Positions 11,155 through 64,000 of a stretch of 64,000 bases of DNA are shown piece after piece; the first letter of the stretch is position 1, and each line of letters opens with the position of its first letter. Made by a program: the position numbers and the translations under genes. Source of the DNA: Watersipora subatra (Eukaryota > Bryozoa > Gymnolaemata > Cheilostomatida > Watersiporidae); contig NC_088711.1 in the NCBI RefSeq assembly GCF_963576615.1, positions 10,224,869 through 10,288,868 of the forward strand, written 5' to 3'. Below the pieces are notes generated by a model. The model saw only the letters and a list, made by a program, of their open reading frames with translations, was not told the DNA's origin and ran no database searches.

Positions 11155-11634
11155 CCGTTCATAATTCAAAAAAAATTCCAAGTTTGAATAATAAAAAACC
11201 TTCGTTATGAAGGAAGAACATTTCACTCACTAGCTTACCAACTAGTGGTAGTACTAACTAGTAGTAGCACAACTAGTAGTAGTAGTCGTAGACTTTAGCA
11301 ATAGTAATAGAACTAGTAGTAGAAGTGACCCACTTGTGAAATGTCATGCCCTTTCCTTTGAAATTCCATTCTTGCGGTTTTTGCAGTTCATGGAATAGCA
11401 ATAGCACTGTACACCTACACCCTTCTCGCTCTTACACAAATTATTAGTAGTAATCTCAGTAGTCTGTTTCTTTGAGTTAGCGGTGTATTCGTGATCTTCT
11501 ATAGCTGTTAAATCTGAAATTAGATTTCTTTCTCACATTGAACACAATGAACTTAACTCAAACGGTAACTGAAAATGGCGTCGGCCGAATATCCGTAATC
11601 GCGAATGACCTCTGCCATTCTAGAGGTTTTGAGT
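11155..11634. other. Spacer with ACTAGTAGT-rich simple sequence
   Basis: Between the foldback-like element and the LINE. About 11230-11330 is rich in CTAGTAGTAG repeats. No gene is seen. Confidence 0.5.
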
Positions 11635-25808: not shown

Positions 25809-26296
25809 GGCTGCATTTAAGGCACTTTATCAAGGGCACTTCATCTAGGGCACTACATCTAGGGCACTTCATCTAGGGCACTACATCTAGGGCACTACAT
25901 CTAGGGCACTTCATCGCGGGCACTTCATCTAGGGCACTTCATCTAGGGCACTTTATCTAGGGCACTTCATCTAGGGCACTTCATCTAGGGCACTACATCT
26001 AGGGTACTTCATCTAGGGCACTTTATTCAGAGCATTTCATCCAAGGCACTTCATCTAGGGCACTTCATCTAGGGCACTTCTTCTAGGGCACTTCATTTAG
26101 GGCACTTCATTTAGGGCACTACATCTAGGGCACTTCATCTTGGGCACTTCATCTAGGGCACTTCATCTAGGGCACTACATCTAGGGCACTTCATCTAGGG
26201 CACTTCATTTAGGGCACTTCATCTAAGGCACTTCATCTTAAGCAGTTCACCTAGGGCACTTCATCTCAGGCACTTCATCTTAGGCACTTCATCCAT
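25809..26296. repeat. 14-bp minisatellite, about 34 copies
   Basis: The unit is GGGCACTTCATCTA, with common ACTACAT, ATTTA and ATCTT variants. It starts in decayed copies near 25809 and ends in decayed copies near 26290. Confidence 0.95.
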
Positions 26297-39800: not shown

Positions 39801-42800
39801 GGAGTGAGACCTATGTAATATTCTGCATCTCCCGCACCCTGTAATCGTCAGGAAATGGTCATGAATTTATTCTATCTTTTTAAGCTATACATAAGGTTTT
39901 ACTAAAGGCAGTTAGCCTCTAACTGGTAGTAAATGGTAAGCCTCGAGTCTCTCTATGATTCAAGTAAGTAGTACACCTCAAGTCTTTCTAAGATTCAAGT
40001 AAGTGGTACACATCAAGTCTCTCTAAGAGTTAAGTGGTACACACCAAGTCTCTATAAGACTCATGTTAAGGAGTTCTATAAGAGGATTGGGTATTTCTTA
40101 AGCACCAACTATACCATAATATCATAGAAATTCAGGTAACCTATTTATAGAATAAACCACATCAGCATCCATACTAGTGAATGCTAAAAACAAAGTGCTG
40201 TCTGGATAGTCCATTTAAATTGCTACAGAACTTAAGGCAGCACAATTGTGGTTGCGTCAAATTTGAGTTGATTTTAAAAGAAAGTCTTTTTTTGTCTATC
40301 AGTTGATATGTTGTTTGTTGTGTTAGGCGATCTCATTGTCAAGATATTTGAAAGTTAAAATGCCTTTACAGAGCATTCATTGATGTTTTGTGTGATGGAA
40401 CTTCGCCAGTAAAAATGTGGTACCGTGACTGGGTGGAGGTCGACTCCATACATTTCCTGCCACTTCATCTTATCCAAGTACATGTACTCGCATGTCGAGG
40501 GATGCAGGCCTCTACAACAGAACACCTCTGTGTTTATTATGATGCAGACTTATATGGTGAAATGTATGTAGTATGGTGTTATCCAATAGGCTTGTATTTA
40601 CTCACATATTGTGCAAATATGTATCTAACCATACAAAGTTGAGCAGACGCATACAAATGTGTTTGTAGGGAACTATTACAGGCATTTAATACCGGAGTTT
40701 GCTCCTAATTTCACATTAGCAACTTGGATGTTTGTAGAAAAGTTTGCTGCATGGACTGAGTCAGTTACCACCAACATTGGTATGGGCAGGCCATATGCAT
40801 GTACTAATATTTCTGAAAATTATGGTTTATAAATAAATTTCATCTTTTTTGTATTAATAGGCTAATCATGACAACAGAATTTCATGGTCTTATTGCTTGA
40901 TAAAATAAAATAAAAATTATTTAAGAAGTGATGCCTTCCTGACACCACCAATTGACTTAATATTCAGCCTGATGAATGCTGGTCAGGGACTTGTTCCTAT
41001 CAGGTACATAAGAGGTACAAGAGGTACTTTTTTCAAATGAAACCAAAGACTTCTAACCATGAATGGTTAAGTATTCTCACAGCATGCATCTGGTACTGTT
41101 AGTACTCACATCAACTTCTGGTGATTCAAAGCAATCGCTTGCTCCAGCTCCTCAGACTGATGTGGGACTAGCCTTAGTTCTGATACATACCCTAATGTGT
41201 GAGCCTCGGGGCTGTAGTCACCCAACTCGGCTGCAATCCATACAAAATATTAGCTAATCAGAGGCCATTTAAATTAAGAACCATGCAGCGTATTCAGATC
41301 TTTTTATAGATAGTAGGATGAATAATGAAGCAGCTAAGACTCACACTGAATGACAAGAGAGCAGAGTTCTACCAGGTGATCAAATGCCAGTGTAATCCTT
41401 CCATTTAGCACGTCGCGTTTAAGTTGAAGGAAGAACTGGTACCTGCAGAACAAGAGATTAGATCTTGCCAAAACTTTAACATTACGAATTTATGTCATGC
41501 AGTCTTCACAGTATGCACTAGAGAAGTATTCCTGCAAGGATCAGGTGTTAGCATCGTAGAGACAAAACCATGAGCAGGTTTTAGTAGCTGTAGATGTTTT
41601 AGCAGTTGTTGATATGTTTAGTACAGACAACCAATAGCAGTATAGAAAGATTGTATGAACCTGCATTCATAGCCCTAGTCCCTTTTCGTGTGCCATGTTC
41701 ATGGCTTGTTGAAAAAGAGAAAGTAAGCGTTACAACTGGAGCGTGTTTTGATTTAAAAAAAACCTCATTTTCCAAATTACAATTTCTATAGATGACTACA
41801 TTACCACATTGAAAATATTTGATCGCGCTATACATGATTTGCTGTGTATGTTGTAGATGTTTGTACCAACAAATACTAGTATATCTTTGATGGGCTACTA
41901 CACTAACACAATTCTGTACTCACATACTTTTATCAACTAACCTTGGCTGACAGCAAGTAATAAGATTGGCCATGATCAAAAGTCAAAACATATTACCTTG
42001 TAATTTCCTCTTTAAGTTTGCAAGGGTCTGTGGCATAGAACTTGACACCGAAGTAAAGCTTCACTGGATTGGTATGAAGGCCGTAGCCTGTAAGACAGCA
42101 TGCAGTCAGTTTGAATGGATTTAGACCAAGTTTACAGGATGCATGATAATTCACTAATATTATTGGGAAATACTTGAGTGATCCCTTAGCGAAGGTCACG
42201 GCTGTGAGGCTAAATCATTGAGGTAGTGAATAGACTAACGACGTGAAGGAAGACGCTTGTGAATGAATAGATATCAACTTACGCTTTATTTCTCTCATCA
42301 ACGCTTTCTGTAAATCCAACCAATGCTGCAACAATAGACAAAAATAGATTTCTATTAATTGTAATTGTTTGCAGGAAATGAGCGATTAGCAGTGGTGATG
42401 ATTCGGTATGAGACCTCCTACGGGCCACTTCATAAAGTCCTTATATAAAGTTCTAAAGATTAACTAGCATAAAAACAATTCTCAGCCAATAGCGACAGAC
42501 GACATGCATTCTTCTTGAAACAAGATACATTCAGGCATAACAGCATATTTAACAACTAAATAATAATATTACTTATACTAGTAGGCAGTAGGTAGCCCGG
42601 CGATGCCTGGGATTTCTTTCATTATCAATCAGATAGTTTGCAGGTAGGTTTTTAAGCGGCTGGTTCATAGGAACTAGATGGAGTTTAGAAACCAAATATT
42701 TTAACAGCCTGGCAGAAGAGACAGATGATATGCATGTGAAGTTTGGTAGAGATCGGCCAAAAATGTGAAAACGCTATGCGTTTTCACATTTTTGGCCGAT

Positions 42801-44053
42801 CTCCACATAAACCATGGAGTTTATTAATATAGATGAGCAAATAAAAATTTTACCCTCATAATTCCTCCTAGTAAATTAAGCGATAAGAAAATGTTTTAAA
42901 GCTGTTTTTCATTCTCATCAGATTAAGAAAATGATTTGAATGCACAGTAAGAACTCATGAGTTCCCCCTTGCTTTAATGGCCTTCTACGATACTAGATAT
43001 CTTCAGGTCAGCTGACCTCCTAGGCCAACATTTAGTATGCTTTATCGAATATATTGCGGCATGGTGCAACCAGGTGCTGTGTGACACATCGCCATCATTA
43101 CTAGAGCTTTAAACGCTGCACACTGGTTCACAGCGAGGCAGCGTAAGCAATAAACGAGTGGCACATTTCCCAATACTTTGCATCAACACGCAGTCTATGG
43201 AAAGGCTCTCCATACTGAGGGCTGATTTATTGATTATTTTGATGAGCTGTAAAACTTGCACCAAGATAGCTAAAACATTTAGCTTTACACCCCAATTTAC
43301 TATGACCATGCACTCTCGTAAGGGTTTACTCATAATACACAAACACAGGCACATCAAACTAGTGACCACTCAAATTAGCAGTGCTGCAGGTGTTAATCTG
43401 GTGATGTCATCGGGTCAAAAACTGCAGGTGTTAAACTGGTGATGTCATCGGGTCAAAAACTCACCGATATCTTGGTCTGTCCCAAGAGCCTTAGCCCGAA
43501 ATAATCTGTCTCTGAGATGTTAAGATATTTGCAAACCTCATCCAACAGTACTTGACCTTTGCTGTGTTTCTGCAATGCCAGAAAATATATATTTAGGAAA
43601 CACATCTAATCATTGTATTAGAACAGAGTTGTTCGACCAGGTAAGTCGATTAGCCTGTGAACTCTTTATTCCGCTGCCTTGAAAGATTAACATCAAAGCT
43701 CACCAATTATAGGTATTTGGCAGTATTTTAGACACTATTGACTTTTGCCTTAGTGTAAAAAGTTTGTGAAAAAAACTTAAAACATATGAACACTACAACT
43801 AGAACTAGATGATTAAAAGGAGGCAGCAGACCTACAATGTGCCATAATATTATTACAGGATCCTATATGCTACATTTTGTTACATAAAACACGAGAAGTC
43901 ACGAATGGTACAACAAAATGCTAATTAGAAATTGTTTCTCCTGCCAACCTTGACTCGTATATTGTAAGACGTGTCATCCAGCAGAGCCACTTGGCAGGAT
44001 ATGGTTCCTTTTTTCCCAGTTCCTTCTTGGCTGAAACAGCTCAGAGTTACCAT
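27897..44053 (-). CDS. EPB41L4A: FERM-domain protein, EPB41L4A orthologue
   Basis: Cortical adaptor of the band 4.1 superfamily linking membrane proteins to actin. Twenty coding exons: 44053-43949, 43569-43465, 42325-42283, 42087-41997, 41442-41345, 41230-41110, 40511-40424, 39838-39750, 39599-39536, 38854-38691, 37743-37598, 35878-35668, 34080-33958, 33030-32980, 32205-32140, 32052-31960, 31473-31405, 29812-29693, 29133-29053, 28524-27897. All junctions are GT-AG and in phase; total about 851 residues. FERM F1 (about 18-100) has KGQVLLDEVCKYL and ETDYFGLR; F2 (about 112-215) YQFFLQLKRDVLNGR, SELGDYSPEAHTLGY, MYGVDLHPV; F3 (about 218-318) YYIGLTPSGVVIY, FWPRI, CCIEHHAFFRL. FRYSGRT opens the FERM-adjacent region. 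The tail is Arg/Ser-rich, then GLSNKQLRQIGYTTI matches a block near the end of vertebrate EPB41L4A. YFGVKFYATDPCKLKEEITR favours EPB41L4A over 4B. The start is the ATG before VTLSCF; an upstream in-frame ATG exists. Longer than the human protein. Confidence 0.9.
36850..37040 (+). repeat. Intronic dispersed repeat, copy 1
   Basis: It shares the order GGATTTCTTTCA, GGAACC-AATGGAGTTT, AAACTAAATATT, GTGAAGTTTG, and CCAAAAAATGTGAAAACG with about 42604-42775. It ends in CAGACAGACACACA and ATTTATTAATATT, like a retroposon tail. It lies in the intron between exons 11 and 12 of EPB41L4A. Confidence 0.65.
37088..37232 (-). mobile_element. tRNA-derived SINE, copy 1
   Basis: On the minus strand a tRNA-like head (GGGGCAGTGGCTAGTGTG as A box, ACGAGTTTGATTCCCATG as B box) is followed by a body and the tail GGCTCTTATTATA. 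The same tail and body occur at 38245-38395 on the same strand. Confidence 0.65.
38245..38395 (-). mobile_element. tRNA-derived SINE, copy 2
   Basis: Minus strand: GAGTGGTGCAGATGGTAGTG as A box, ATGTTCAATTCACATGC as B box, then CTTTTTTCC and GACAGACGGATGAGCACGGC, ending CTCTTATTATAG. The family is shared with 37088-37232. It lies in the intron between exons 10 and 11 of EPB41L4A, sense to the gene. Confidence 0.65.
42604..42830 (+). repeat. Intronic dispersed repeat, copy 2
   Basis: It opens near the motif AGCCCGGCGATGCCTGGG (42594-42611) and follows the same motif order as 36850-37040, but its right part is folded into a perfect hairpin. It lies in the intron between exons 2 and 3 of EPB41L4A. 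Confidence 0.65.
42751..42801. repeat. Perfect 24-bp hairpin with 3-nt loop
   Basis: Bases 42751-42774 are exactly complementary to 42778-42801 around TAT. The left arm starts GATCGGCCAAAAATG and ends AAAACGC. The related copy at 36.9 kb has only the left arm, so the right arm is an inverted duplication. Confidence 0.95.
43384..43459. repeat. Tandem 38-bp duplication beside a splice donor
   Basis: 43384-43421 and 43422-43459 differ at one base. The second copy ends 4 bp from the donor GT of EPB41L4A exon 2 (donor at 43464-43463). Confidence 0.95.
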
Positions 44054-47000
44054 GATAACGTGTGTGCCCACTAGATGTTGAATTCTCTTCGCTAGACAAT
44101 CTGTAGCAACCAATCATAAACCCTCTAAGCTAATGCGTAGGCCAAACACTGTTTATGGCTTTCATATGCAGCGCATACATGTATAAATCAGCACCTAGCC
44201 CGAGGACAATATTAGCTATGCTATTCTCTAATGATATAAATTTCTTTAAATTCAAAAGGAGAAGATAGTAGAGGGCGAGGAAGCATTAAATATTTATGTA
44301 GGTGTTTGCAGGTTAATGACTATATTTAAAATAGCTATAATAAGCACACAAAATTTAGAACTCATATCTATATGTAATCAAAGCAAACTTGGCACTAAGG
44401 CTAGGTTAAAGAAACACAGCTACACCTGAAGTATTATCAGATGGTTGAGTGCAAAGAGCATGTCTTTACCCGAGGGAACACAGTAGTGGGCCAAAGCTAT
44501 GACCAACTGCTAGGTTTGATGAGTAGCTATTGTGTCTACACTAAGCTAGGAGAAGATCGTAATTATCTCCCAGTTTGTTCCAACAGCACCACCTGAGAAG
44601 TTGTTATCGGACTTTAACAGAGGTACTCGCATGTGACAAGGATATTGAATGACAGGCGACAATATTCTAACAGAATTGAAAAATCAAAAAAATCAATTTT
44701 TGTGCTATGGCCAAGCTCTGCTAGAGGTATTGCAACAATAAAGCATTAATGATAAAATATCACATTATGTATGAATGACTAAAAACGACTTGGCTCAATC
44801 AAGCCAGAAGTGACAATACAAGCAGGTACTTGTGTAAAATGTCAAGTAGGTAATATAAACATCAGCGAAAGAAGGAGCTCACAAATACCACTCGAGGTAA
44901 GATTATGTCAGCACTTTAGGCTGACAAGCAAGTCAAAAAGTGTCAGAATGGTTAGCGATACTCGAGGTCTGCGCAGGCAAGATAGTATACCATTACTCAC
45001 CTGTTCTACAACTTAGACAGGCGCAGCAGGTAAAACTACACTCGAGGTAGAGCTGAACTTGAATTGAACTTGCAGGTAGAACTGCACTCTTTTCAGCTTT
45101 ATAATGATGACCAATTTCGATTACCCCAAACACTACCTCAACCCGCTAATGGACTGTTAATTTTAGTGGAGAGGATAGCGGATAATACACCGACATTAGC
45201 AGCTAGCTGTTTGTCACAAGATTGAGCTTTGGTAAACATAATTAACATCAACAAAAGTGGTTTTATTTGAACAGCACCGCAGTCAAAACATCACATTTGT
45301 GATGCTCAATTAAACCTACCTGCATGCATTTGTATTGTTTATTACCAAACTGATGTGAGCATTCTAAACATGACTTTACCAAAGAGCATACTTTTAAATA
45401 AGTTGGCAGTTGCTAGCTCGGATCTGCTAAGTTCGCACCTTTTTAAATAATGAACGGATTCAAATGGTTACACATTAATTCTCAAGTCTCAGCTGTGACC
45501 ACACAGGCTACTCATAATGTTATCATTTTGGTTTCGAACTTTTTGTCGTGGGTAAAGCTGTAGACAGCTAGATTTCGTACACTTTACTTAACAAGATGAT
45601 GGCAATGCTTAACAGGCTCAGTAAACTTCACACGAATGTCCAACATTACACAGAGCTATTTGAACAGCCCAATTCAATATAACTTACCTTCAAATATGGA
45701 TGAACATTTGCAAACTTGCTACCAGTTGGGCTGCATGCAACAGCAAACCTTTGCATCCATGTCCATATTTTCAGCAAGCGTGAAACAATCACTCTGTAAA
45801 CTGCATGCGTTGGCACAAGCTGGATAATTAATGGAAGCAAAAAATACAATAGCTCGCATTCACCTCGCGTATCAATAATTCACACATTGAACAAAAGAGC
45901 ACAACTACCTATTTCTTTTGTGATGTTTTAGATTGGTGTTGTTTATAGGATTAAGGCAGCTGATATGCACTAGCTTTTACTATTCGCTAAGCCTTGATAA
46001 AGTTTCAGCGGAATTATTGCTGCTACTCCAAAACTACTGGATGATCTTTGAAGTTGTCCCTTCAATTAATACTTCATAACCATTCAAGAACAACGAATCT
46101 TATTGTCCACCTCACATCACACTATTCCACAGTCTGATTTTCATAAAGATATCATTTAGAAGAATATCATGATATCTACACTGTAACTCAGAAAACTATG
46201 TCAAATCTTTCAGCTGTTCATTACTCTTGTTACAGTCTGTACTGCTTGGATCAATGTTAGATCAATCATAGGTTAAAATAAACGTTATAAACGTTAGACC
46301 CTATATCTTAAAGTTCAATAAATCCTATTATTCCATTGCTTACAATGTAAGCAAACACCCTTTTCATTTTCCATTATCTATATATATGTTTGACTCTGAT
46401 TACCCGTGAGTATGTATGCCCTCTATAGAAACTAATTTCTTGATAATAGAATGATCTGAAATTCTGCTTATGGTTTTTTTATACTCCCTAAGGTTTTACG
46501 TACAAGATAATTTTGAGTTCACCACCCGTAAGAGATGTTAATACCGAAAAAGACATTTTTGGAAATGAAAATGATGATAAGTACGATTTCATGAAGAGAT
46601 GACTAAAATGTTAACCAATATGGGATTTGAATACATAACACTCACCTTATTAAAGTGATACTCTAACCGACCGAGCTAATCAGCCAGCATCTGAGGCTTC
46701 AAAATCATTCTACCAATCAGAGATGAAAATTATCTATTTATATCTTTGCTTATTGTATTTGTTTCAAGAATAAAATAGAATAAAAGAATAAAATTCAATG
46801 TATATTTTTCCTCCCTGGCAATGCTGGGCAGGTCTGTTTGTTATTATTACATTAGTCTAATGAGAATCTAGCAGCAGATGCAAAAAGCTATAACTCAGGG
46901 TTTAAAATGAACACATTGAAATGTTATGTTAGTTACACAGAACATACAAGAAATATTCTTTAGATACAAACAGAAAACAACTCCCAATATTGGTGCCAGT

Positions 47001-48194: not shown

Positions 48195-50923
48195 CTAGTC
48201 ATTTGAGATTCCATCCACATCCATTTTTACCCTTTTTGTTTTCGGCGCCTCCGGTAGATCTTGCTCATGTTTCAAATCAAATACTTCAAATTCGCTCTCA
48301 TCTTTAGGCATGAGAGCGGAAAGGTAGGACAAAGCTGATGGCTTGCAAGCTATCAGAGGAAATGCTGCATTGATGGGATTATCCCTGTCATCGCAGTAGT
48401 AATCAGTGTCTCCTGTTTTAGCTACAAACTTAGTCAAAGCATTTTCTGTATTTTTCCGCTGCGCAGACGCCTTTTCCCTGACTAACTGGTAGTCGGTGGT
48501 CGGGTGTCGCTGGGCAACTGTCTGAATGTAAGTGTGCTTATCGGGAAAACTAGGAAGATTTTCATGAACATACGTCGGCTGAACAGTGCTGCTGTTTACC
48601 GCTAGAGGTTTTAACCTCTGAGTGTCGGTCTCGTTAGCAGGCGTCTGCACGGGATAACTTCTCCGTAAAACTGAATCAGCGAATGGCCGAAGACCTTGTA
48701 ATGATATTCCTGAATCTATGAGAGCCAGACTCAGGTCACAAACCATAACCTGCAGAAAAAAACAACCTCGTGATAATTGATTGATTCCAAATAATGATAT
48801 ATACATTATTAAATCTTAAGCCATCTTTATTTTGTATTTCATACACATTCATCCGTAGTGAATAAGTCATCGACTGCAATCTTTTTACTCGAGTGCAGAT
48901 TGCCAATCATAAAGCATGGCAATCTTAGAAAATTTTACTTGCACTCATAGCCAATGAATTTTGTTGCCAACAAAAACCAGTGTTTTCAAACATTTACTGT
49001 AAAACACCAGCACAATGATCACTAATCATCTGTCTTCTATGAGAGAAACTTGGCGTTTATAAAATGGTCAAACCTCAACATGAGATGTTAATTTAATTCG
49101 TACCTTCTACAGTATTACATGTAGCATAATACAAATATATTATATAAAAATGTGTGAGAAAAACTAAACACAAAAACCTAAATTATATGTAAAGCTAAAT
49201 TAATTGAAAACTAATAAAATGCATTTATTGTTACTCTATCTTAGAGACATCTGAGTGGAAGTGTAGGCTCAGCACACCTAGGGTCAGCGGTAGAGTGATA
49301 AAAATATGACGTGTGACTTACTTGAACTATATATAATTTAAATAACCATAATTATTATATTTTAACATTTCTCCTAGTTTTTACCAATGTTCACCTGTTT
49401 AGAGATTTTGGCCCTTGTATGTTAAAAACCATTTTATAACTATGTCGAGTAGAATATTTGCCCAAATTTTACGTTATGTCGAAAAATTTCATCTGTAGAG
49501 GTGATACAAGCGGAGGATTGACTCTACAAGACTGGTGACTCACATAGTACATTCCCCATAATGAGTAACATCTACCGTAGCATCAAACATTTGTAGGCAC
49601 AGCAGTCTTGATTAAAGACCACTGCCTCTTCTCACTAGACATGTGATTAATTTTTGCCTAACTACACAAGCTGAGATTCAGGCAATCCAGACAGTTTGGA
49701 GTTGTGGTATCAAGCTTTCAATTCATAGGTAAATTATTAGAGCACGAAAAGAAATGATGGTGATAGCTCCACACCTGAATAGATTCAAGACCAACATGAT
49801 GCAAATAGTCAAATTAGTAATGCACCGATTATGAGCAAATTATTACAGGAGGCTTTTCAATAAATGTAGATGTACAATTGCAGACAAGTTGGAGGGTTTA
49901 TTATAGCTGCGTCAAACCATCATAACTTTATACCACAGAGACACAGATTGCTTAAATGAGTTAGCCCTAATGGTGCTGGTTGTGTTATGTTGCAGCGCAA
50001 GTGAATATTATGATATTGATAGAGTAAATATTTCACTGCAATGTAGAACATAATTAATGAGGTTAAAATAACAATTAACTACTTTATTAGTTTTTGAACA
50101 AACCAATGCTTTTTGTTAGGATGCTAGTAGGATGTTACAACCCTACTAATAGGCTACAGCAGTTAAGTGCTAAAATACACAGGCTAATTATCTTCATCTT
50201 ATGTCTGAGAAGGTAACTCCAAATTGAATGATTGGCCTGACATATCAAACAGTTTTACAATGTGTCACAAATAGCGTTAACTTCGATGATAAAAAATTCC
50301 ACTAAAAAGCAGCATGCTCTCATTATGCCTTGCTGTCCTGCGCATACACCACCTGTTATACTGTTCAAAAAATGACTAAAAACATGAAAATACTAAATAG
50401 AGCCACATTCAATGCATGACAAGCTTTAAAACCTGACGACGCTGTAAAATCTATAGATATTACACAATGCCTCACATGTCAAACATTAAATCTTGCACTC
50501 ATAACAGCATCACATTGATTATTGACCTTCTGTGGGAGACAGAATGTACGAATCACAGCATTGTACAAACAAGTTTCGTTTAAATGTTACGCAGGTAGAA
50601 ATCCCAAAAAAAAACTTTTGTTGTGGCACGAAAAAACCAAGAGCTAATACTTATAACAAGTAGTCATCCCATCTAAGACTATCACTGAAATGATGCTGAA
50701 TTTTTTAGAGGTTGACACCTAAGCGCTTACTAACCTGTGATCTGTTTGCCACCTCTGAATGGTGTTTGGCAGATTTACCAATTTGAGAAATGAAGCTCTG
50801 AACCATCTCAAGGAGTGACTCCAGCGCGAGAGGATCTACTGCTGAGTAGCCGCCAGCACGGATAATAGCAGCTACCGAACTGCTCATTGCTACTCGATAA
50901 GGACTTGTATCCTTGGATCCCAT
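48195..50923 (-). CDS. TAF8: Transcription initiation factor TFIID subunit 8
   Basis: TAF8 is a nuclear TFIID subunit; its histone fold pairs with TAF10 and its C-terminal part holds TAF2 in the complex. Two exons, 50923-50735 and 48749-48195, join in phase 0 at CAG|GTTAGTAAG and CTGCAG|GTT, giving about 247 residues. The histone fold spans about residues 10-85: VAAIIRAGGYSAVDPLALESL, LEMVQSFISQIGKSAKHHSE, then, after the intron, CDLSLALIDSGISL. The TAF8 C-terminal domain follows: LPSFPDKHTYIQT (about 128-140), TTDYQLVREKASAQRKNTE and ALTKFVAKTG, each close to vertebrate TAF8. The end is acidic, then basic (KTKRVKMD), a likely nuclear localisation signal. The protein is shorter than human TAF8, mainly after the conserved domain. 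The start ATG at 50923 sits just before the fold, as in relatives. The 2-kb intron holds nothing I can name. Confidence 0.93.
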
Positions 50924-52338: not shown

Positions 52339-52672
52339 TGTAACATTCGATGTATATTCTACGCATCGGCGCCTTCCAATTCTACTAATCACGTGGCTCT
52401 CATTATAATATTATGTGTTAGCTTTATCAGCTTTGTATAATATTATGTGTTAGCTTTATCAGCTTTGTATAATATTATGTGTTAGCTTTATCAGCTTTTG
52501 TTATGTGTTAGCTTTATCAGCTTTGTTATAAGTTAGCTTTATCAACTTTGTTCAAAACTACGTGTCTTATACTAAAACTTTCTTTTCTGGTCCAGACCTG
52601 CGAACAATACACTGCGTTTCAATTCTCCAAACAATATTCCTTACTTGAGCAACTTATAACCAACATATTACA
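52339..52672 (+). repeat. Left LTR of the Gypsy element
   Basis: Begins TGTAACATTCG and ends ATATTACA. It contains several tandem units of the form GTGTTAGCTTTATCAGCTTT, one or two more than the right LTR. Confidence 0.93.
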
Positions 52673-55600
52673 CGGTGTCAGGAGTGGGATGTTTCACTGA
52701 GCTGGCGATCCCATATCCTTTCTCAATGTGTTGCGTTGGTTAAGTAGAGCCATGTAGATGTCTCCAACCGCCTTGGACGTCTTCTCATGCAGGCGTTTGG
52801 CTGTCTGAACAGATTTCTCTGCAAGTCCATTGCTGGATGCGTGGTAAGGGCTAGCTAGATCTTATGTGTTCAATATTCCATGCTCGCATGAACTTTCTGA
52901 GCTCCTCTGAACTGTACGGCTGACCACAATCTGATATTAGAGTCACTGGTCTACCAAATCTTGCGAAATGGGCTTTCAGTTTCTTAATCAGGGTCGCTGC
53001 AGAGGTGTCGCGAAGTGTGTCAATTTAATACCAGCCTGAGAATGAGTCTACAGTCACCAAATACGTAATCGATCTCCAGTAGAACATGTCAGTGGCTACG
53101 ATGCTCCACGGTTGCGACGGTACAGGATACGATAGTAACGGTTCTCTCGGCTGGTGATTTCTGGATGTCTGACATATACTGCAGAGAGCTAGTGCTTTGT
53201 CGATGTCACTACTCCTGCCTGGCCAGAATACTATGTCGTTGGCACGTCGCTTGATTGCTTCGATGCCAATATGTCCTCGATGGAGCTGCTGGATATAGTC
53301 GCCTTTAAGCAATTGAGGTACATTAGCACGATCACCTCTGTAAACTACACCATTCTCAACAACGAGTTCATCACGAAATGCGAAATACGGCTTGATATCT
53401 TTGGCTACACTGGCCTCCTTTCTGGGCCATCCAGTCAGTATGAGTTCACTTATCATACTGAATACGGGACCACTGGTTGTGGCTTGCTGTAGCTCTAGAT
53501 ACTTCTGGTCGGTTATCGGCGTTACGGCGAGTACGTCAAAGTCTATGTGTTCGTTATTGTCATTGTCCGGTAAATAGGCGCGAGACATTGTATCAGCGAG
53601 GTATTGTGTCTTGCTCTTCCTGTATATGATGTTTAGATGATACGGCTTCAGCTGTAGTAACATACTCTGAAGTCTCCTAGGTGCTGCGGATGACAGCTTA
53701 TTCATAATCGATACGAGCGGCTGATGGTCGGTTTCTACGTAAAGTCTCTGAACACATATTCTCTGAATCGGTAACAGGCGAATCTTATGGCCAGCAGTTC
53801 TTATTCTATCTGAAAGTAGTGTTTCTCGGTATCCGTCATAGCTCGGGAGGCAAAACTGAAAACTCTGTTGTCCTAAAGGCAGGCTGCCCCCAGCCCAGAT
53901 TGCGAGGCATCGCAGATAAGTGTTACTGGCTTATTGACGTCGTAATAGGTAGGAGTCGTTGCGTTAGCGATCTCGTCTTTTATGGCTTTCAGCGCTTGTG
54001 CCTGCTGTGCCTCCCAGGTCCATGCTGTGTCTTTACGGGGTAGGTCGTTTAGTACGACAGTCTTCTCGCTCAGGTGCGGTATAAACTTGGCGAGATACTT
54101 GACCATGCCTATGAATCTCTGTAGTTCTTCTACATTAGTTGGGCTTGGCATGTCGGTGATTGCCTTGACCTTAGCAGGGTCAGGTTTCAGTCCCTGATCG
54201 GTTAGTACGTGCCCTACATATCGGACTTCTGTCGTTTTATACTTGCATTTACACGGCGACAGTTTGAGGTTTATCTCCTGCAGTCGTGGCATTACTCTCC
54301 TGACGTTGGAGTCGTGTTCATCCTCAGTCTTACCAGCTATAAGAATATCATCCATTATTATTTGGCACGGATAGTCGGTCAGCGGCTGTTCTATAGCGCG
54401 CTGATATACGTCTGAGGACAAGCAGAGTCCCATCGGCATACACAGATATCGGTATCTGCCAAACGGTGTACCAAACGTGGTAAGGTATGACGAGCTCTCT
54501 TCTAGTGGTATATGGTAGAAAGCTTCTTTCGCGTCGACTACAGTAAAGTGCTTAGCTCCAGATATGTTTGCTGCTACCTGTTCGATTGTCTTAAGTGGGT
54601 GATGAGGTCGTTTGATAGCCTTGTTCAGGTCACCCGGGTCGATACAGATATGTACGTCGTTACTGTCCTTGCCGGTTACTTCGAGTGCGGATACCCAGTC
54701 GGTAGGTTCGGTTACCTTGGTGATAATACCGCGATCCTCTAGTCGGTTTAGAGCTGCTTCTACTTTGTCACGTAGAGGCGCTGGTACAGAGTAGACAGGT
54801 CAAATGACTGGTGCTACTTCTAGATCTATCGTTATCTTGTAGTTACATGGCAGTGTACCTAGTTTGCCATCAAACAACTCTGGATAGTCTTCTAGTAGCT
54901 TGGCTGGAGCCTGCGGCTTTTGCTCTACTTCGAATACTTCCTGACTAAGTGTTACAAGTCCTAATCGTATACTATCACTAAGTCTTAGTAGGCATCTGGG
55001 GTCGCTATCGACTAGTTTGAATCGCAATTTCGACTGAGGGTGCGGTATAACTACGGATCCTACAGTCACTGTCTGAGCACCTCTAAAGCCTAATAGCGTG
55101 CTAGTACGTGATCGGTCGATTTTACTGTGTAGTCCTATACGGCGTACTTGATCGAGCGAAATTACATTTACTTTTGCACCTGTGTCAATCTTAACCTCTA
55201 GCGAGGTGTCATTGACAGTAAAATGAGTTTGTATGTCTCCACGATTGTTACACGGCAGTGATACTGTTTCGATACGGAAATCTTCGTGATACGATTCTGT
55301 GAGTTAATCTACAGTTCCTGGCTGCTTTGCACCTGACCTGCACAGTTTTGCATAGTGATTGAGTTTACCACAATTGTTACATTTATGACCATACGCTGGA
55401 CACTGTTTCGGTGAGTGCCGTTTCCCACAGTTACGGCATGACGATGTGCTATGACTACTTGCAGTTCTGGGTCGTGTTGACGATTTAGCATGATTACTAC
55501 TACAGCTAGTGTTACTGTTACTCAGTCATTGCGTATACAATTTGCGTTTTACTACGTCTACGATCGATTTACTGAATTCGGCTGCATTCTGCTCTGAAAA

Positions 55601-56772
55601 CTCGTATATCTGACAAGTTTGTATAGATTTGGCTAGTGTTAGGTCACTGTTTCTGAGTAGTTGCTTACGTACATTATCATTACGGATACCGGATACAATT
55701 CTGTCGCGTAATAACTCATCTTGCAAGTCTCCAGAATCACATTGCGCAGCTTTAGTTCTAATGTCTGCTAAGAAAGTTTGGAACGGCTCACCTTCTTTTT
55801 GGCTGCGTGCATTGAATCAATAGCCTTCTAAAATGACATTGGTGATCGGCCTGCAGATCTCTCTCAACTTTCGCTTTAAAGTTGCTACCTGCTCCCTGGT
55901 TTCTTGAGGTACAGCTACAATGCCATGCTCCGCATCTTCTGCTATTGCTTCATTGTACGTGAATGACCGTTTTCTTTCTATCGCTTCTGGCCCTGCCAGG
56001 TTAAGCAGCATATACGCCCTGGCAGCCTCTGGTTTGTCACTATATATGGCATTGGCATAAATGTCATATTCTTGCTCAAATATCCTCCAGTTTTCGAACA
56101 CATTTCCCTCGAACGATAGGGGCTGTGGCCTCCTCAGTCCACTGTCCATAACTGACTAGTAGGCAGACTCTTGACACCATGTAATGAAGACGTCCAAGGC
56201 GGTTGGAGACATCTACATGGCTCTACTTAACCAACACAACACGTCGAGAAAGGATATGGGCTCGCCAGCTCAGAGAAACATATCCCGCCCAACTCGCATA
56301 CCGATACCGACCGCGAGACGCTCCTACGACCCACAATCATGGACTCTGAGGCAGTGCAACATAAGCTGTCACAAGAGCGTGCTCGTCAGAAACCATACGC
56401 TGATCACTCTGTTGTTACACTCCTGACACTCACACCAGGTGATACCATGCGTATGCAGACCGACCAAGGCTTCTGTGACACCACCGCGACTATCGTTGAA
56501 ACAGCCAATCCCCGATCGTATGTTGTGCAGCAGAACGACAAAACATACAGACGTAACCGTTGCCACCTGCTACACGTACCGACTCCTGCTGACAACCATG
56601 TTGCTGATACTGTGGTTCCGCCACCACCTACTATGTCTACCACCTCAGATTACAAGCCAGGTGACTCGCCAGCTCGCTCGACACCCGCCGCCGCAACTTA
56701 CACTCCTGTGACAGTGACTAGATCAGGACGTGCAGTTGTTAAACCAATTCAATATCACGACTAGGGAAATGA

Positions 56773-57048
56773 TGTAACATTCGATGTATATTCTACGCAT
56801 CAGCACCTTCTAACTTTACTAATCACGTGGCTCTCATTATAATATTATGTGTTAGCTTTATCAGCTTTGTATAATATTATGTGTTAGTTTTAACAGCTTT
56901 GTTATGTGTTAGCTTTATCAGCTTTGTTCAAAACTACGTGTCTTATACTAAAACTTTCTTTTCTGGTCCAGACCTGCGAACAATACACTGCGTTTCAATT
57001 CTCCAAACAATATTCCTTACTTGAGCAACTTATAACCAACATATTACA
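56773..57048 (+). repeat. Right LTR of the Gypsy element
   Basis: Same ends as the left LTR. Outside the tandem part only a handful of substitutions separate the two, and the last 150 bp or so look identical. The length difference is due to tandem copy number. Confidence 0.93.
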
Positions 57049-57053
57049 GGTAC

Positions 57054-58399
57054 TGAAATATTAACATTATTTTATTTTAAAAAATAAAACCATTCACATC
57101 TTCAAGTGCAAGACTAACAACAAGCTCCAAAACGTCTCATCTCGTTGCACATCACCCTACATGCTATACGTGTATTTTTTTACAGCAAAATGCATATTTG
57201 TTCAGACCATGTCTATTGATCTTGTATCATTTAATAATCTATACCCATAAAACTTCCGAGTTGAATACTTTCAAAGACTGCAAACTCTCCAATAAAGTTG
57301 GGTCACGCTTTATTGTAATTTTGCGAATTGATGTGTCCCTAAACCTGCACAACTTCACCTTTTGTCCGTACATACATACAATAAAGCAATTTTTAAAAAA
57401 TTTTCAGATGGATTCAAGAAGAGCCGTATAGCTTCACAAACTAGGTTCGTAAAACTATACGGCTATGGGTTCAAGAAGTATAGACGAATCATGTAATCAC
57501 GGTAGTCAATAATGTTTTGGTGATAACTTTGGCAACATTGCGAATGCTAAAAAGATAAAACCGAAAGCTACCTATTGTACATTTTTTGTTAGGAAAGTCG
57601 CCGCCAAAAATCGTTTAGAAGACAACAAGTAAAACAAGCGTAAAATTAACGCCCACAGAATAATTAACCATCATTTGATCAAACACGTGACCCGAGTAAA
57701 CCTCAGTCAGTTCGATCTGCGCAGGGGTCCAGGCTTCATTTGTTGTATAACATCTCAACATCGAATAACATCTAAACATCAACGAAATACCAAGTGCCGG
57801 AACTTTGAACTAGTAAGCACAATATTGTTAAATATCAGAGTTAGTGTAATATTTAGAAGAAAGGTAGGATCTCACGCAAACTTTTGCTTGCGTTTTCGTA
57901 ATTCATTTCCTCGAGAACAGCTGAGTGTTACTCTATTAGGCTAGTATTAGCTTGCTTAGTTTGCAAGTTTCTCACACCGGCTTTTTCTCAGCCAAAATCC
58001 ATAGGGACAAAAGCTAATGGAACTCAACAAAACTATATTTTGAAGAAGTTTAAAAGAAAAATTTTCTTCCCTATCCTTGGTAATCTTTAGTTAAGTGTCG
58101 GACTGGTTAACTTTAATCTCGTGTGTTCATCATTTTTTAGGACTTAATTTAATAAGCCAATGAAGCTTAAGTTAACTTGTTTAAAGTAAGAGCGTACGTA
58201 ATCTTTAAAATGGCTAGCTAGGTAAAATAATTCATGATTAGTCAAGCAACTGTGGTTAATGCCCAGACGGCTTCTTGTCAATGTAGAATGTATTGCCTAT
58301 ATAGAATGTACAGCCTATTTCAATGCTTACATTACGTCAAGCTTGATGCAATGACTTTGTGTTAGACTATGTACATGGACTATTGAGTTGCGTTTCGAT
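57054..58399. other. Gene-free stretch
   Basis: A 10-bp inverted repeat (AGCCGTATAG/CTATACGGCT, about 57422-57464) flanked by repeated TTCAAGAAG is the only structure noted. An 89-codon open frame near 57.7-57.9 kb lacks supporting features. Confidence 0.45.
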
Positions 58400-60057: not shown

Positions 60058-63000
60058 ATGTTGTTTAGGTCTTCAAGTTTGTTATGCTTTTCAATAATTG
60101 AAGTATTGTTTGTTTTAGGCCTCATGTTGTTGCTGTTAATGCTGTGCGCTGCTGCAAGCGCGAGTAGCAATGTAACATTGAGTTTAGAGGGTACTCTTGT
60201 TAAAGCAGAACTCGCTCCTCATTCACCCACAGACCTTTTCATACAGCACACTAATACTAACTACTCGGACTTCTATGTTCCTCAGTGTCACGCTAGAAAG
60301 TACAACTTCACTTTAGCCACTGGATCTACTAAAGAGACAAGTTCTTCAGTTGGTAATGACATCTTTAACAGCGACTCCTCGATGACACTCATCAATGATG
60401 TGAATAATGAATCTATTCCTGTCTACTGCGTATACACGTCGTATAACATCTCAGGTATGGCTTCACTGAATAGATGTTATACTAACTAACCTTTGGTTTG
60501 CGAAGTTTTACGTTTGTTGTCTACTGATGACTGCAGGTTTTTTGTCTTTTGCTATTCATAGATATTATAAGCCACACAACACGGACACTTGAACATTGCT
60601 TGTTCATGGCCTGTACGACCTTTATTGTGGTAATCCAATGAAATGCCTCGATATCATTACAAGGCAAATGTTTTCCATTGTATAGGAATTCTGATGGTAT
60701 TTTGCAGCTCCTGTCCCTGGAGGCTGCAACCTAGAGTTTAACTTTGAAAATGATCCAAACATACATAGTTGGTATGATGGCTTCCGTTTGTGGCTGGAAT
60801 TTCAATACGCTAGTGTGAAAAGGCTCGAGTGTGATGACCAAAAGGGATGGGATTACCTGACTTATTCCGTCTATGCTATATACCTTCAGGTTAGTATTGC
60901 GACATACATCTACGGATTAGTCGTGTAAATGTTGGTTGGTATGAGATAACATAATGTAAATGATATATTGATATGAAAATCCAAGCTGAGCTTAGGTTGG
61001 TCTGAGCTCGCTATCAACTTGAAAAAATGTTTCTATCTTTCTATGTTTCTATGTTTCTAAATCTTGAAAAAACTATTTACTGTACATTTCTATTTTGGAT
61101 ATTTTTGATAAAATGACAAGTCATTGCTAAAATACTCTTCGTTGTTGCTTCATTATGTTGGAAATAATAATTTGCTATATTATACACATTAATTGCTCCT
61201 GAGGCTTTCTCAAATATATATCTGTTGGTCAATTCTTTGGAATGAGCTGAATAGTTGCTGGAGCTCTTTACATATGTTAGAGTGAACTTTTCCTTTTTTA
61301 GGTTGCTGGCGACCAGGATACAAATTTTTCAGATATGCTCAGGGATGTCATCACACCTGCTGGTATCGAGAGCAAAGGAACTAAGGTACACACACGCCAG
61401 TATATTAGAGATCATTTACACACTAAGACATAAGCATTTGATTGCTAGCCAGTTAGCAGATCTGTGGATAAGCTTTTGACTAAATAAATATTGTGTGCTA
61501 AGGAGCCATTCTTAAACTTCGAGTATACTAAATGACTGACACTGAGTTATTCTCACTGTAAATTGCCGAACCATACGCTTGATGTTGTTTTCTATCACAT
61601 AGTAGTGTCGCTGAGTTTGCTGTTTTCTCATGCCTCTATAATCATATGCCTTCAACCATGATAATAGATAACAATGGCTTGTGACACGAGTGCGTTTTGG
61701 AACTGTCATGTAATTGTCTTGGGCAATATCGTAGTCTCTGTTAGTACCAATATCACTATTGTGCCTATGAATGATGAGGCAGTCTGTATTAGAGGATCTG
61801 ATCCTAGTATCCGTATTAACACTGAGATTGATTATTTGGATGGGTGTCGGCTGAGCATTTTTAAATCGATCTGAAACCTCCGATAATTTCTGAGCTATTT
61901 AACAAATCCTCTATTATTCAGGGTAACATTATCCTAGCTGACCACACTAAGAAATGTAATACATTGAGAGCTATTTATTATCTCTCAAATGTCAATATTG
62001 AATGAATAACAAACATGCCGACAAATTTCGCGAAGAATTTTTACGTTTCAGTCAGAATGGAAATAACAGGTATTGCAGTTGTCTCTTGCAATGATAAAAT
62101 TCATTGCAATCGATAATGGACTGTTATGGACTATGAATGCATTGTTATATTTCTTTTTATTCACATGCATCACAAAGTTAAATTACCTTTATATATTATA
62201 TTTCTTTTGAATTTCAACAAATATATACATATTTCATTTTTTTATTCTGTAATAATAGAAGCATACAACGATGCAACACAAAAGGGTGGGATCAATACTG
62301 AAGGCAAAAAACTTAGAGAGAATTGATAGATTGGATTGGTATCCGGATCAGCTCTTGCATTTCAAATTGTGGCATATCTAGTTAAAATACCATGAATAAT
62401 TTAGTTCATCTAAAGCCTAAACAGCAGTTGGCCTCTTTCAATTTTTTATTTTTATAGAATAGTCACCCATCTCATTGTTTCGTTTTCATTGCTTTCCAAT
62501 ACAATGTAAAAAAAGTGGAACAGCCTGCCAGCCTTTTACATTTATCCTATGGTGTTATTGCGTTGTCAATACTGGCTATTTTCGGTCTATATCTAGATAA
62601 TAGAACACACCCAGGCACAGTCGAACAAGCCCGCCCTTGTGGTCACCTCCTACCCAGACCAGGGTGTCTTTATAGCAGTTATCGTCGAAGATAAGTTGAC
62701 CGGTCACAAGTCAGCCTATGTTCCACGAGTCTCATATGGCTGTGACATTGATAGACACACTTCAGGGCATCCGTGTCAAGGTATAGCCAACATACCAGTT
62801 TCCAGTCATGACATAAGATCATGTGGTGACATATTATTGTAGCGAATCATGCGTGTAGGAAATGAAAATATTTGTGAGTCATGAATATATATTAGTAATG
62901 CTCCGGCTGTGCCCTTTGTGTCCCTGTTATTCAGATTTAGCTTGGCTGTAAATATCGTCGCTTGTTGCTGAGGAAGTTTTTGACTCGTTTATTGGTTATC

Positions 63001-64000
63001 TTTTTATTGTGTGTTTCTAATAGACCTGACATCATGTGGAAAATATAGCCCTAATTCCGGTAGATAGACCATAAAAAGTTTATTGGTACAATGGCAGTGC
63101 AATGACTGAGTGACAGCCCAAATACCACAAAATCTCTATTTGAACGCCATGGCTCTCGATTTTCCAATCCTTCTCTTATAGTGGCTTTCAAATTAAGGTG
63201 GCTTTCAAATTAAGGTGGCTTTCAAATAAAGGTGGCTTTCAAATAAAGATGGCTTTCAAATAAAGGTGGCTTTCATTTAGAGATTTTACAGTATCTCTTT
63301 CATGTAATTGAAGGCCAGATAGGTCATTTTAAAATCATCCTTCTGCCAAAACTTTCCGATTGCCTCGTCGGTTTGAACCCATATTTATGTCAATGTTACC
63401 TGCTATGGCACTTCATTCTTAGTAAGCTTTCAGTCTACTATTGTAGTTCAGTGGTACTACTACTTGCTGGCAGCCGTGATCACTGTTGCTGGCCTTTTCA
63501 TCACCTTCCTTGGACACAGATTCTTCGCATATGAACTTTTTATAATGGGATTTCTAACTGGACTGCTTTGCGGCTTTATAGGACTGCTTGCTGCTCGGGT
63601 GTCAGTCATAGGTAAGAAGTGTCTGTTTGTGTCAGTCATAGGTAGAAAGGGTCTGTTTATGTCAGTCATAGGTAAGAAGTGTCTGTTTGTGTCAGTCATA
63701 GGTAAGAAGTGTCTGTTTGTATCAGTCATAGGTAAGAAGTGTCTGTTTGTGTCAGTCATAGGTAAGAAGTGTCTGTTTGTGTCAGTCATATGTAAGAAGT
63801 GTCTGTTCGTGTCAGTCATAGGTAAGAAGTGTCTGTTTGTGTCAGTCATAGGTAAGAAGTGTCTGTTTGTGTCAGTCATAGGTTAGAAGTGTCTGTTTGT
63901 GTCAGTCATAGGTAGGAAGGGTCTGTTTATGTCAGTCATAGGTAAGAAGTGTCTGTTTGTGTCAGTCATAGGTAAGAAGTGTCTGTTTGTATCAGTGATA
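60058..64000 (+). CDS. TM7SF3: Seven-transmembrane protein TM7SF3, N-terminal part (runs off the edge)
   Basis: TM7SF3 is a multi-pass membrane protein, linked in vertebrates to cell survival and stress responses. Exons: 60058-60454, 60708-60889, 61302-61385, 62597-62780 and 63447 to about 63611, all GT-AG and in phase. Exon 1 has a hydrophobic leader; an internal ATG (MLLLLMLCAAASA) could be the true start, giving a classic signal peptide, and TTTTAG just before it could even be an acceptor. Exon 1 carries five N-glycosylation sequons (NVT, NYS, NFT, NES, NIS). Exon 2 begins PVPGGCNLEFNFENDPNI, near-identical to the vertebrate family signature PVPGGCNLEF. Exon 4 has YPDQGVFIAVIVEDKL. Exon 5 encodes the first two membrane segments (YYYLLAAVITVAGLFITFLG, ELFIMGFLTGLLCGFIGLLA) around GHRFFAYE, as in relatives (GHRFWKTE). 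Exon 5 ends inside a tandem array. The remaining helices lie beyond the window. Confidence 0.87.
63128..63275. repeat. Dispersed repeat with tandem GTGGCTTTCAAATAAAG units
   Basis: About six 17-18-bp units lie at 63181-63275, preceded by GAACGCCATGGCTCTCGATT. Family shared with 23836-23965. It lies in the intron between exons 4 and 5 of TM7SF3. Confidence 0.8.
63601..64000 (+). repeat. 30-bp tandem array carrying a 5' splice site in nearly every unit
   Basis: The unit is GTCAGTCATAGGTAAGAAGT then GTCTGTTTGT. It starts at the 3' end of TM7SF3 exon 5 and continues to the window edge, at least 13 copies. Most units contain ATAG|GTAAGAAGT, a strong donor; a few are altered (for example ATATGTAAG, AGGTTAG, AGGTAGG). 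Because 30 is a multiple of three, the exon frame stays open through many units (VSVIGKKCLF repeats) until a TAG at about 63884. Confidence 0.95.

What the first reader, a model, noticed from the sequence alone, without database searches (positions are those of the whole stretch)
63601..64000. Tandem array of 5' splice sites at the end of TM7SF3 exon 5
The exon 5 donor (ATAG|GTAAGAAGT) is contained in a 30-bp unit repeated at least 13 times up to the window edge. Most units keep a donor-quality sequence and the coding frame stays open through about the first nine units. Thus many equivalent donors compete, each adding ten residues (VSVIGKKCLF type) in frame. The insertion would fall just after the second membrane helix. 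Either the first donor dominates, the products vary in length, or the array acts as a U1 snRNP platform. I know of no described case in this gene.
Basis: partly seen in the sequence, partly recalled or inferred. Interest (0 to 1): 0.75.

Follow-up and report, generated by a model that had tools for sequence, protein, structure and literature searches.

The report
Repeat array duplicating a splice donor
At the end of one coding exon of an animal gene resembling TM7SF3, a 30-base stretch carrying the signal that marks where the exon stops has been copied head to tail at least thirteen times, which may let cells make slightly longer versions of the protein; the kind of thing is already known from a few genes, so this looks like a tidy new example, not a new principle.

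Summary
A 30-bp minisatellite runs from 63599 to the window edge (13.4 copies; 13 hits, 0 expected). Each unit straddles a donor, ATAG|GTAAGAAGT; 9 of 13 full units keep it exactly. The frame stays open through donors 1-10 (TAG at 63884-63886). The gene is TM7SF3-like: 29% identity over 227 aa to human TM7SF3 recalled from memory, plus a sub-threshold PF13886 match. The natural donor is most likely unit 1 (exon ends at 63611).

A 9-unit block duplication and substitutions that do not spare the donor suggest a young, mainly neutral expansion, though only nine distinct changes were available. Best reading: a minisatellite born at the exon-5/intron-5 boundary, spliced mostly at its first few donors, giving minor +10-residue isoforms. 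Nothing found supports a selected U1 platform.

The kind is known: IFI6 (Turri 1995, seen as a citation and one passage of a citing paper) and dual-specific splice-site arrays in UBC and VCX3A (PMC10809524). Which donors are used, the array's 3' end, exon 6, the species and polymorphism could not be tested.

The parts
60124..60454 (+). TM7SF3-like exon 1 (model; signal-peptide-like start by eye), donor CAG|GTATGG
   Evidence: open frame and junction phase; donor score 5.43
60708..60889 (+). exon 2 (model), encodes PVPGGCNLEF... block shared with recalled human TM7SF3
61302..61385 (+). exon 3 (model)
   Evidence: donor AAG|GTACAC is weak, 0.04
62621..62780 (+). exon 4 (model); acceptor uncertain, donor weak
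   Evidence: acceptor scores -2.52, donor -0.21
63423..63611 (+). exon 5 (acceptor 63423 or 63447), two hydrophobic stretches; its last 13 bases are the first part of repeat unit 1; both ends phase 1
63599..64000 (+). 30-bp minisatellite, 13.4 units, each carrying ATAG|GTAAGAAGT or a variant; continues past the window edge
63612..63613 (+). GT of donor 1 (probable natural donor of exon 5); further donor GTs every 30 bases to 63972
   Evidence: score 4.56 and U1 duplex -9.4 kcal/mol, against -0.67 and -6.1 for CGG|GTGTCA at 63598, the best other GT in exon 5
63884..63886 (+). in-frame TAG in unit 10, closing the read-through frame after donor 10
63601..64000 (+). higher-order structure: units 1-5 repeated as units 10-14 (270-bp block duplication; unit 14 seen only for 10 bases)
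   Evidence: lag-9 identity 0.977 over 130 positions (0.91-0.95 at lags 1-8 and 10-12); 4 of 5 comparable variants shared at lag 9, none at lags 1-8, 10 and 11 (none comparable at lag 12)

Best explanation
A short tandem duplication, followed by slippage or unequal exchange, took in the exon-5/intron-5 boundary of a TM7SF3-like gene (13 exonic plus 17 intronic bases) and grew into a 30-bp minisatellite, so the intron now begins with a ladder of near-identical donors. The spliceosome most likely joins exon 5 to exon 6 from unit 1 and the next few strong units. This would give a normal product plus minor in-frame products lengthened by 10, 20, 30 residues (VSVIGKKCLF type) in the loop after the second helix. 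Donors beyond unit 10 would give an in-frame stop and probably mRNA decay. The expansion is tolerated because it adds donors without removing the original one, and it drifts mainly neutrally. Shown: the array, the donor strengths, the frame, the block duplication, and no visible sparing of donor positions. Inferred: origin from the boundary, which donors are used, fate of long products, neutrality.
For: Array and donors. Unit 1, next to unique exon sequence, is identical to the consensus. Exon 5 through VSVI aligns with recalled human TM7SF3 up to ...ITRLTPI, so unit 1's exonic part fits the normal coding sequence. Reading on into the repeat lowers the PF13886 score from 23.5 to 21.6 bits, so the extension does not look like normal TM7SF3 sequence. 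Substitutions: 4 of 9 in the donor, 2.7 expected, P(at least 4)=0.27; a missense-stop-synonymous mixture of 4, 1 and 4. Eight other arrays (period 10 or more, about 3 copies or more, score above 100, overlapping rows merged by me) lie in this window, so minisatellites are common locally. Precedent: in IFI6, two downstream repeat units serve as splice donors and three mRNA species result (passage in PMC4526556).
Against: No RNA evidence. Only nine distinct substitutions, so weak constraint would be missed; 4 of 9 are synonymous by single-base reading where about a quarter are expected (roughly P=0.17, worked by hand), a slight lean toward peptide constraint, though one of the four (position 16) occurs in unit 2 together with position 15, and the codon there changes Lys to Arg. 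The competing rule is that the intron-proximal donor wins when several strong donors are bound (recalled; in DOK7 the proximal of two donors 11 nt apart is preferred, but it is also the stronger, passages in PMC5585400). Applied here, that rule would favour the last donors, giving stop-containing mRNA. The array end and exon 6 lie outside the window. Modelled RNA accessibility does not single out unit 1 (0.31; range 0.16-0.47).
Confidence: 0.6

Rival explanations
1. Dual-specific array: each unit carries T-rich sequence then CATAG|GTAAG, so each can act as acceptor and donor. Pieces of the array of 60, 90 ... nt can be spliced out internally and each splice regenerates the same donor, collapsing the array back toward the normal exon.
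For: In-array acceptors score as well as most of the gene model's own: TCAG| up to 2.4 and ATAG| up to 1.5, against 0.74, 6.98, -2.52, and -0.18 or -1.07. Unit length is a multiple of 3. [quoted passage not shown]
Against: The acceptor scores are not rare: 4.5% and 7.9% of 3820 AGs elsewhere on + reach the usual in-array values 2.18 and 1.27. No yURAy branch-point match in the 400 bases 63601-64000; in the first two units the only looser yUnAy match is a variant of unit 2. Neighbouring units are only 30 nt apart, shorter than usual animal introns (recalled). No RNA data.
Confidence: 0.2
2. Selected U1 snRNP platform: the repeated donors recruit U1 to strengthen definition of exon 5 or protect the transcript from premature polyadenylation.
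For: Donor density about 49-fold over the + strand background (9 in 0.4 kb against 0.46 per kb; about 33-fold over the - strand's 0.68); multiple U1 can bind before the surplus is removed on U2 engagement (passage in PMC8283771 citing Hodson 2012).
Against: Substitutions are not depleted at donor positions, and 4 of 13 donors are altered. Copies inherit the donor by descent, so density alone is no evidence of selection.
Confidence: 0.07
3. The array is essentially coding: the true exon 5 reads through many units and uses a donor late in, or beyond, the array.
For: Frame open for more than nine units; slight excess of synonymous changes, 4 of 9.
Against: In-frame stop in unit 10; openness follows from the 30-bp period; read-through lowers the family score; the repeat peptide is hydrophobic with paired lysines (19-residue hydropathy about 0.8-1.7), unlike a usual extramembrane loop (recalled).
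Confidence: 0.05
4. Assembly artefact: the copy number or the 270-bp block duplication was inflated in assembly.
For: Tandem arrays are error-prone; 9-unit block repeat; only one assembly seen.
Against: Units 1-4 and 10-13 differ at 2 of 120 positions and the partial unit 14 differs from unit 5 at 1 of 10, as expected of true diverged copies, though alleles could do the same; in any case the repeat itself would be real.
Confidence: 0.08

Closest known systems
IFI6 (6-16/G1P3) minisatellite with multiple splice donor sites (Turri, Cuin and Porter 1995, NAR 23:1854)
   Same: [quoted passage not shown] downstream repeat units serve as donors and three mRNA species result (passage of PMC4526556). 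The paper itself is not held.
   Different: Different gene; IFI6 unit about 12 bp (recalled) against 30 bp here; use is reported in IFI6, untested here.
Dual-specific splice-site arrays in tandem repeats (UBC, VCX3A; Duan et al. 2024, PMC10809524)
   Same: AGGT in the units of a tandem array, unit a multiple of 3, laddered in-frame isoforms.
   Different: In UBC the unit is itself coding (228 bp) and acceptor use is shown; here the array straddles a donor, and acceptor use is only possible on paper.
Intron gain by tandem duplication of AGGT segments (Rogers 1989; fission-yeast 24-bp repeats, ATP2A1), as described in PMC4974935; also internal tandem repeats at exon-intron boundaries said to form novel introns, PMC2812944
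   Same: Short AGGT-bearing segment amplified in tandem; introns may span several copies (passages); repeats at exon-intron boundaries modify gene structure (passages).
   Different: Here an existing intron boundary seems to have been duplicated; no new intron is shown.

Membership tests
Minisatellite-borne multiple splice donors (IFI6 type) | Tandem array of 10-100 bp units at an exon-intron boundary | tested here: met
   the boundary itself is a model
Minisatellite-borne multiple splice donors (IFI6 type) | Donor consensus within the units | tested here: met
   9 of 13 units exact; 12 of 13 (frequency score) or 11 of 13 (U1 duplex) at or above the weakest modelled donor
Minisatellite-borne multiple splice donors (IFI6 type) | More than one unit used as donor in mRNA | not testable with these tools
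   no RNA reads
Dual-specific splice-site array (UBC type) | AGGT in each unit, unit length a multiple of 3 | tested here: met
   12 of 13 units keep AGGT; unit 7 has ATGT; period 30
Dual-specific splice-site array (UBC type) | Acceptor context (pyrimidine tract, branch point) in the unit | tested here: inconclusive
   tract and AG comparable to most of the gene model's own; no yURAy branch-point match
Dual-specific splice-site array (UBC type) | Use as both 5' and 3' splice site | not testable with these tools
   no RNA reads
TM7SF3 (TM7S3/TM198-like) gene | Similarity to TM7SF3 outside and inside the membrane domain | tested here: met
TM7SF3 (TM7S3/TM198-like) gene | PF13886 above the curated cut-off | tested here: inconclusive
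   23.5 bits for the last 99 aa, 20.8 for the 307-aa model, against cut-off 29.2; 40 of 199 profile positions matched before the window ends. The exon-5 open frame alone, array included, showed no PF13886 match at E up to 1. An unrelated-looking DUF4282 also matches below its cut-off (17.4 bits, E=0.007)

The most novel reading that the evidence does not exclude
The array acts as a self-collapsing, dual-specific splice ladder at an existing intron boundary: units are removed by internal or recursive splicing that regenerates the same donor, so the gene is buffered against repeat growth while also making graded, copy-number-dependent loop lengths in a multi-pass membrane protein.
Probability: 0.1. 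Interest if true: 0.65.

Novelty: new member of a known kind. Interest (0 to 1): 0.36.

Why it matters
It is a natural competition experiment: nine identical donors and four variants, 30 nt apart, in one transcript, the first ten in an open frame. Long cDNA reads would show directly how the spliceosome chooses among equal donors by position, and how copy number changes isoforms. It also illustrates how a minisatellite can arise on a splice site and be tolerated. It does not by itself point to a new mechanism.

Tried and rejected
Own genome: none held. Relatives: the exact 25-mer gave 0 matches in viral contigs and genome contigs. A protein search with the 307-aa model found 10 pattern stretches in genome contigs and 1 in viral contigs, none confirmed by tblastn. 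So no species, orthologue or allele could be compared; the organism is not established. PDB: the one chain listed at E up to 10 had E=0.22, no convincing relative.

A different end of exon 5 (CGG|GTGTCA at 63598) was rejected as much weaker: -0.67 against 4.56. RNA structure as a chooser of donors was not supported: the array folds less stably than 100 mononucleotide shuffles (-79.5 against a mean of -94.4, sd 5.3) and accessibility does not single out unit 1. Other arrays with donors: of the 8 others I examined none holds AGGTRAG on either strand; the one at 39928-40063 has GTAAG 3 times on +. Arrays with fewer than three copies (such as 43384-43461) were left out of that count.

Literature: ten searches. 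For this gene: 116 papers hold 'TM7SF3' (20 listed); 'TM7SF3'+'splice'+'sponge' gave 6, of which the 5 listed are circRNA, leukaemia, fibrosis and cancer papers by title. I saw nothing on such an array in TM7SF3 in those listings; the papers were not read for it. A guess that the window is from a sponge was not supported by anything found (one search gave 2 papers, neither to the point by title). Passages that led nowhere: DDX3Y and its MSY2 minisatellite, earthworm metallothionein minisatellites, PMC8724738 (hits in its reference list only).

Caveat: the donor and acceptor frequency tables are human-like values from memory, and the species is unknown. Scores are for ranking only.

Full report
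What is there. The last 402 bases of the window are a 30-bp tandem array, 63599-64000, 13.4 copies, 93% matches, no indels; a 25-mer of the unit is found 13 times in register, with none in 100 shuffles. With the register set at 63601, eight of 13 full units equal the consensus GTCAGTCATAGGTAAGAAGTGTCTGTTTGT. The array runs off the window, so its length is a minimum.

The gene. Open frames joined at plausible splice sites give a five-exon model whose phases fit. The 307-aa product (made with the 63447 acceptor) aligns with human TM7SF3 as I recall it: 66 of 227 identical, E=1e-24, including PVPGGCNLEF, a QGV..VIV block and GHRF..ELF. That recalled sequence is itself a strong PF13886 match (6.9e-42). 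The window product matches PF13886 only below the curated cut-off (20.8 bits for the whole model; 23.5 for its last 99 aa; cut-off 29.2), over 40 of the 199 profile positions, the rest lying beyond the window. The exon-5 frame alone, with the array, showed no PF13886 match at E up to 1, and DUF4282 also matches below its cut-off. The acceptors of exons 4 and 5 are uncertain. I therefore call it TM7SF3-like. The species is not known; it is a eukaryote by its introns and gene content, and no genome is held.

The donor. Exon 5 ends most plausibly at 63611, ATAG|GTAAGAAGT: score 4.56 and U1 duplex -9.4 kcal/mol, against -0.67 and -6.1 for CGG|GTGTCA at 63598. The array thus starts 13 bases inside the exon and carries the boundary with it. 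Nine of 13 units keep the exact donor. By the frequency-table score 12 of 13 reach the weakest modelled donor (unit 2 fails); by U1 duplex energy 11 of 13 do (units 7 and 10 fail). The consensus unit donor is about as strong as those of exons 1 and 2 and much stronger than those of exons 3 and 4 (all). Donors of that score occur at 0.46 per kb on + and 0.68 per kb on - elsewhere in the window.

The frame. Thirty is a multiple of three, so each further donor adds ten residues. A TAG at 63884-63886 closes the frame inside unit 10, after donor 10. Donors 1-10 keep an open frame; donors 11-13 carry the stop. Since the copies descend from one open unit, the open frame is not evidence for coding. 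Reading into the repeat lowers the family score (23.5 to 21.6 bits), and the repeat peptide is hydrophobic with paired lysines.

History. Comparing units at every lag, lag 9 stands out: 0.977 identity, with 4 of 5 variants that could be shared being shared, and none at the other lags that had any to compare. So a block of nine units was probably duplicated. Collapsed to distinct changes there are nine substitutions: 4 synonymous, 4 missense, 1 stop read one base at a time; 4 of 9 in the 9-base donor, where 2.7 are expected, P(at least 4)=0.27. The neutral expectation is about 24-27% synonymous and 69-70% missense, so synonymous changes are somewhat in excess (roughly P=0.17, worked by hand); one of them sits in unit 2 beside a second change, and together they swap Lys for Arg. 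The numbers are too small to exclude weak constraint, but donor positions show no sparing. Eight other arrays scoring over 100, with about three copies or more, lie in the window, one of them, 17 bp, 0.3 kb upstream in the modelled intron 4. A minisatellite landing on a splice site in such a genome is not startling.

How it would work. In the early complex several donors can be bound by U1 and the surplus is removed when U2 engages; choice depends on affinity and position (passage in PMC8283771). In IFI6 two downstream repeat units serve as donors and three mRNA species result (passage in PMC4526556), which is why I expect the first few units here to dominate. The counter-case is intron-proximal preference, as in DOK7 with donors 11 nt apart; there the proximal donor is also the stronger, and when the distal one was replaced by a copy of it, SRSF1's suppression of the upstream site was weakened (passages in PMC5585400). 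Intron-proximal choice here would yield stop-containing messages. A third possibility is that units also act as acceptors: the T-rich stretch and AG are as good as most modelled acceptors of this gene, though 4.5-7.9% of AGs elsewhere are as good, and dual-specific arrays are spliced this way in UBC. But no yURAy branch-point match is present in 63601-64000.

Comparison. The nearest precedent in kind is the IFI6 minisatellite (Turri 1995; the paper is not held, and is known here from reference lists and one passage of a citing paper). The dual-specific arrays of PMC10809524 (abstract, sections 7 and 8, and passages seen), AGGT-segment duplications (passages of PMC4974935) and boundary repeats in human paralogues (passages of PMC2812944) are the next. 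Structural features of the first are met; use is untested. I file it as a probable new member of that kind.

Verdict. Interest is moderate: an unusually clean natural competition among equal donors, but ordinary in its likely origin and with known precedent. Its use in mRNA is undetermined.

Noticed in passing
52404-57064: A Gypsy-like retrotransposon on the minus strand (RVT_1, RNase H and integrase H2C2 matches; the Gypsy label is by eye). Near-identical peptide strings and the same 25/32-bp short repeat appear at about 52404-52700 and 56838-57064, which look like its terminal repeats. A + strand frame at 56175-56426 shares a peptide with the minus-strand frame at 52694-52861, so the element appears rearranged.
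   Followed up: partly
11633-13486: A 617-aa open frame with a reverse transcriptase domain (RVT_1, E=1.4e-36), by eye of a LINE-like element.
   Followed up: no
48198-48815 (minus): Open frame with the C-terminal domain of TFIID subunit 8 (TAF8_C, E=3.7e-15).
   Followed up: no
22008-22923 and 25821-26293: Two larger minisatellites, 35 bp x 26.2 and 14 bp x 33.8 copies; neither holds AGGTRAG on either strand.
   Followed up: partly
63181-63275: A second minisatellite, 17 bp x 5.6 (96% matches), in the modelled intron 4, about 0.3 kb upstream of the donor array.
   Followed up: no
46612-46685 (minus): Rfam tRNA match at 37.9 bits that ARAGORN does not report; a tRNA-derived repeat or pseudogene is possible.
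   Followed up: no
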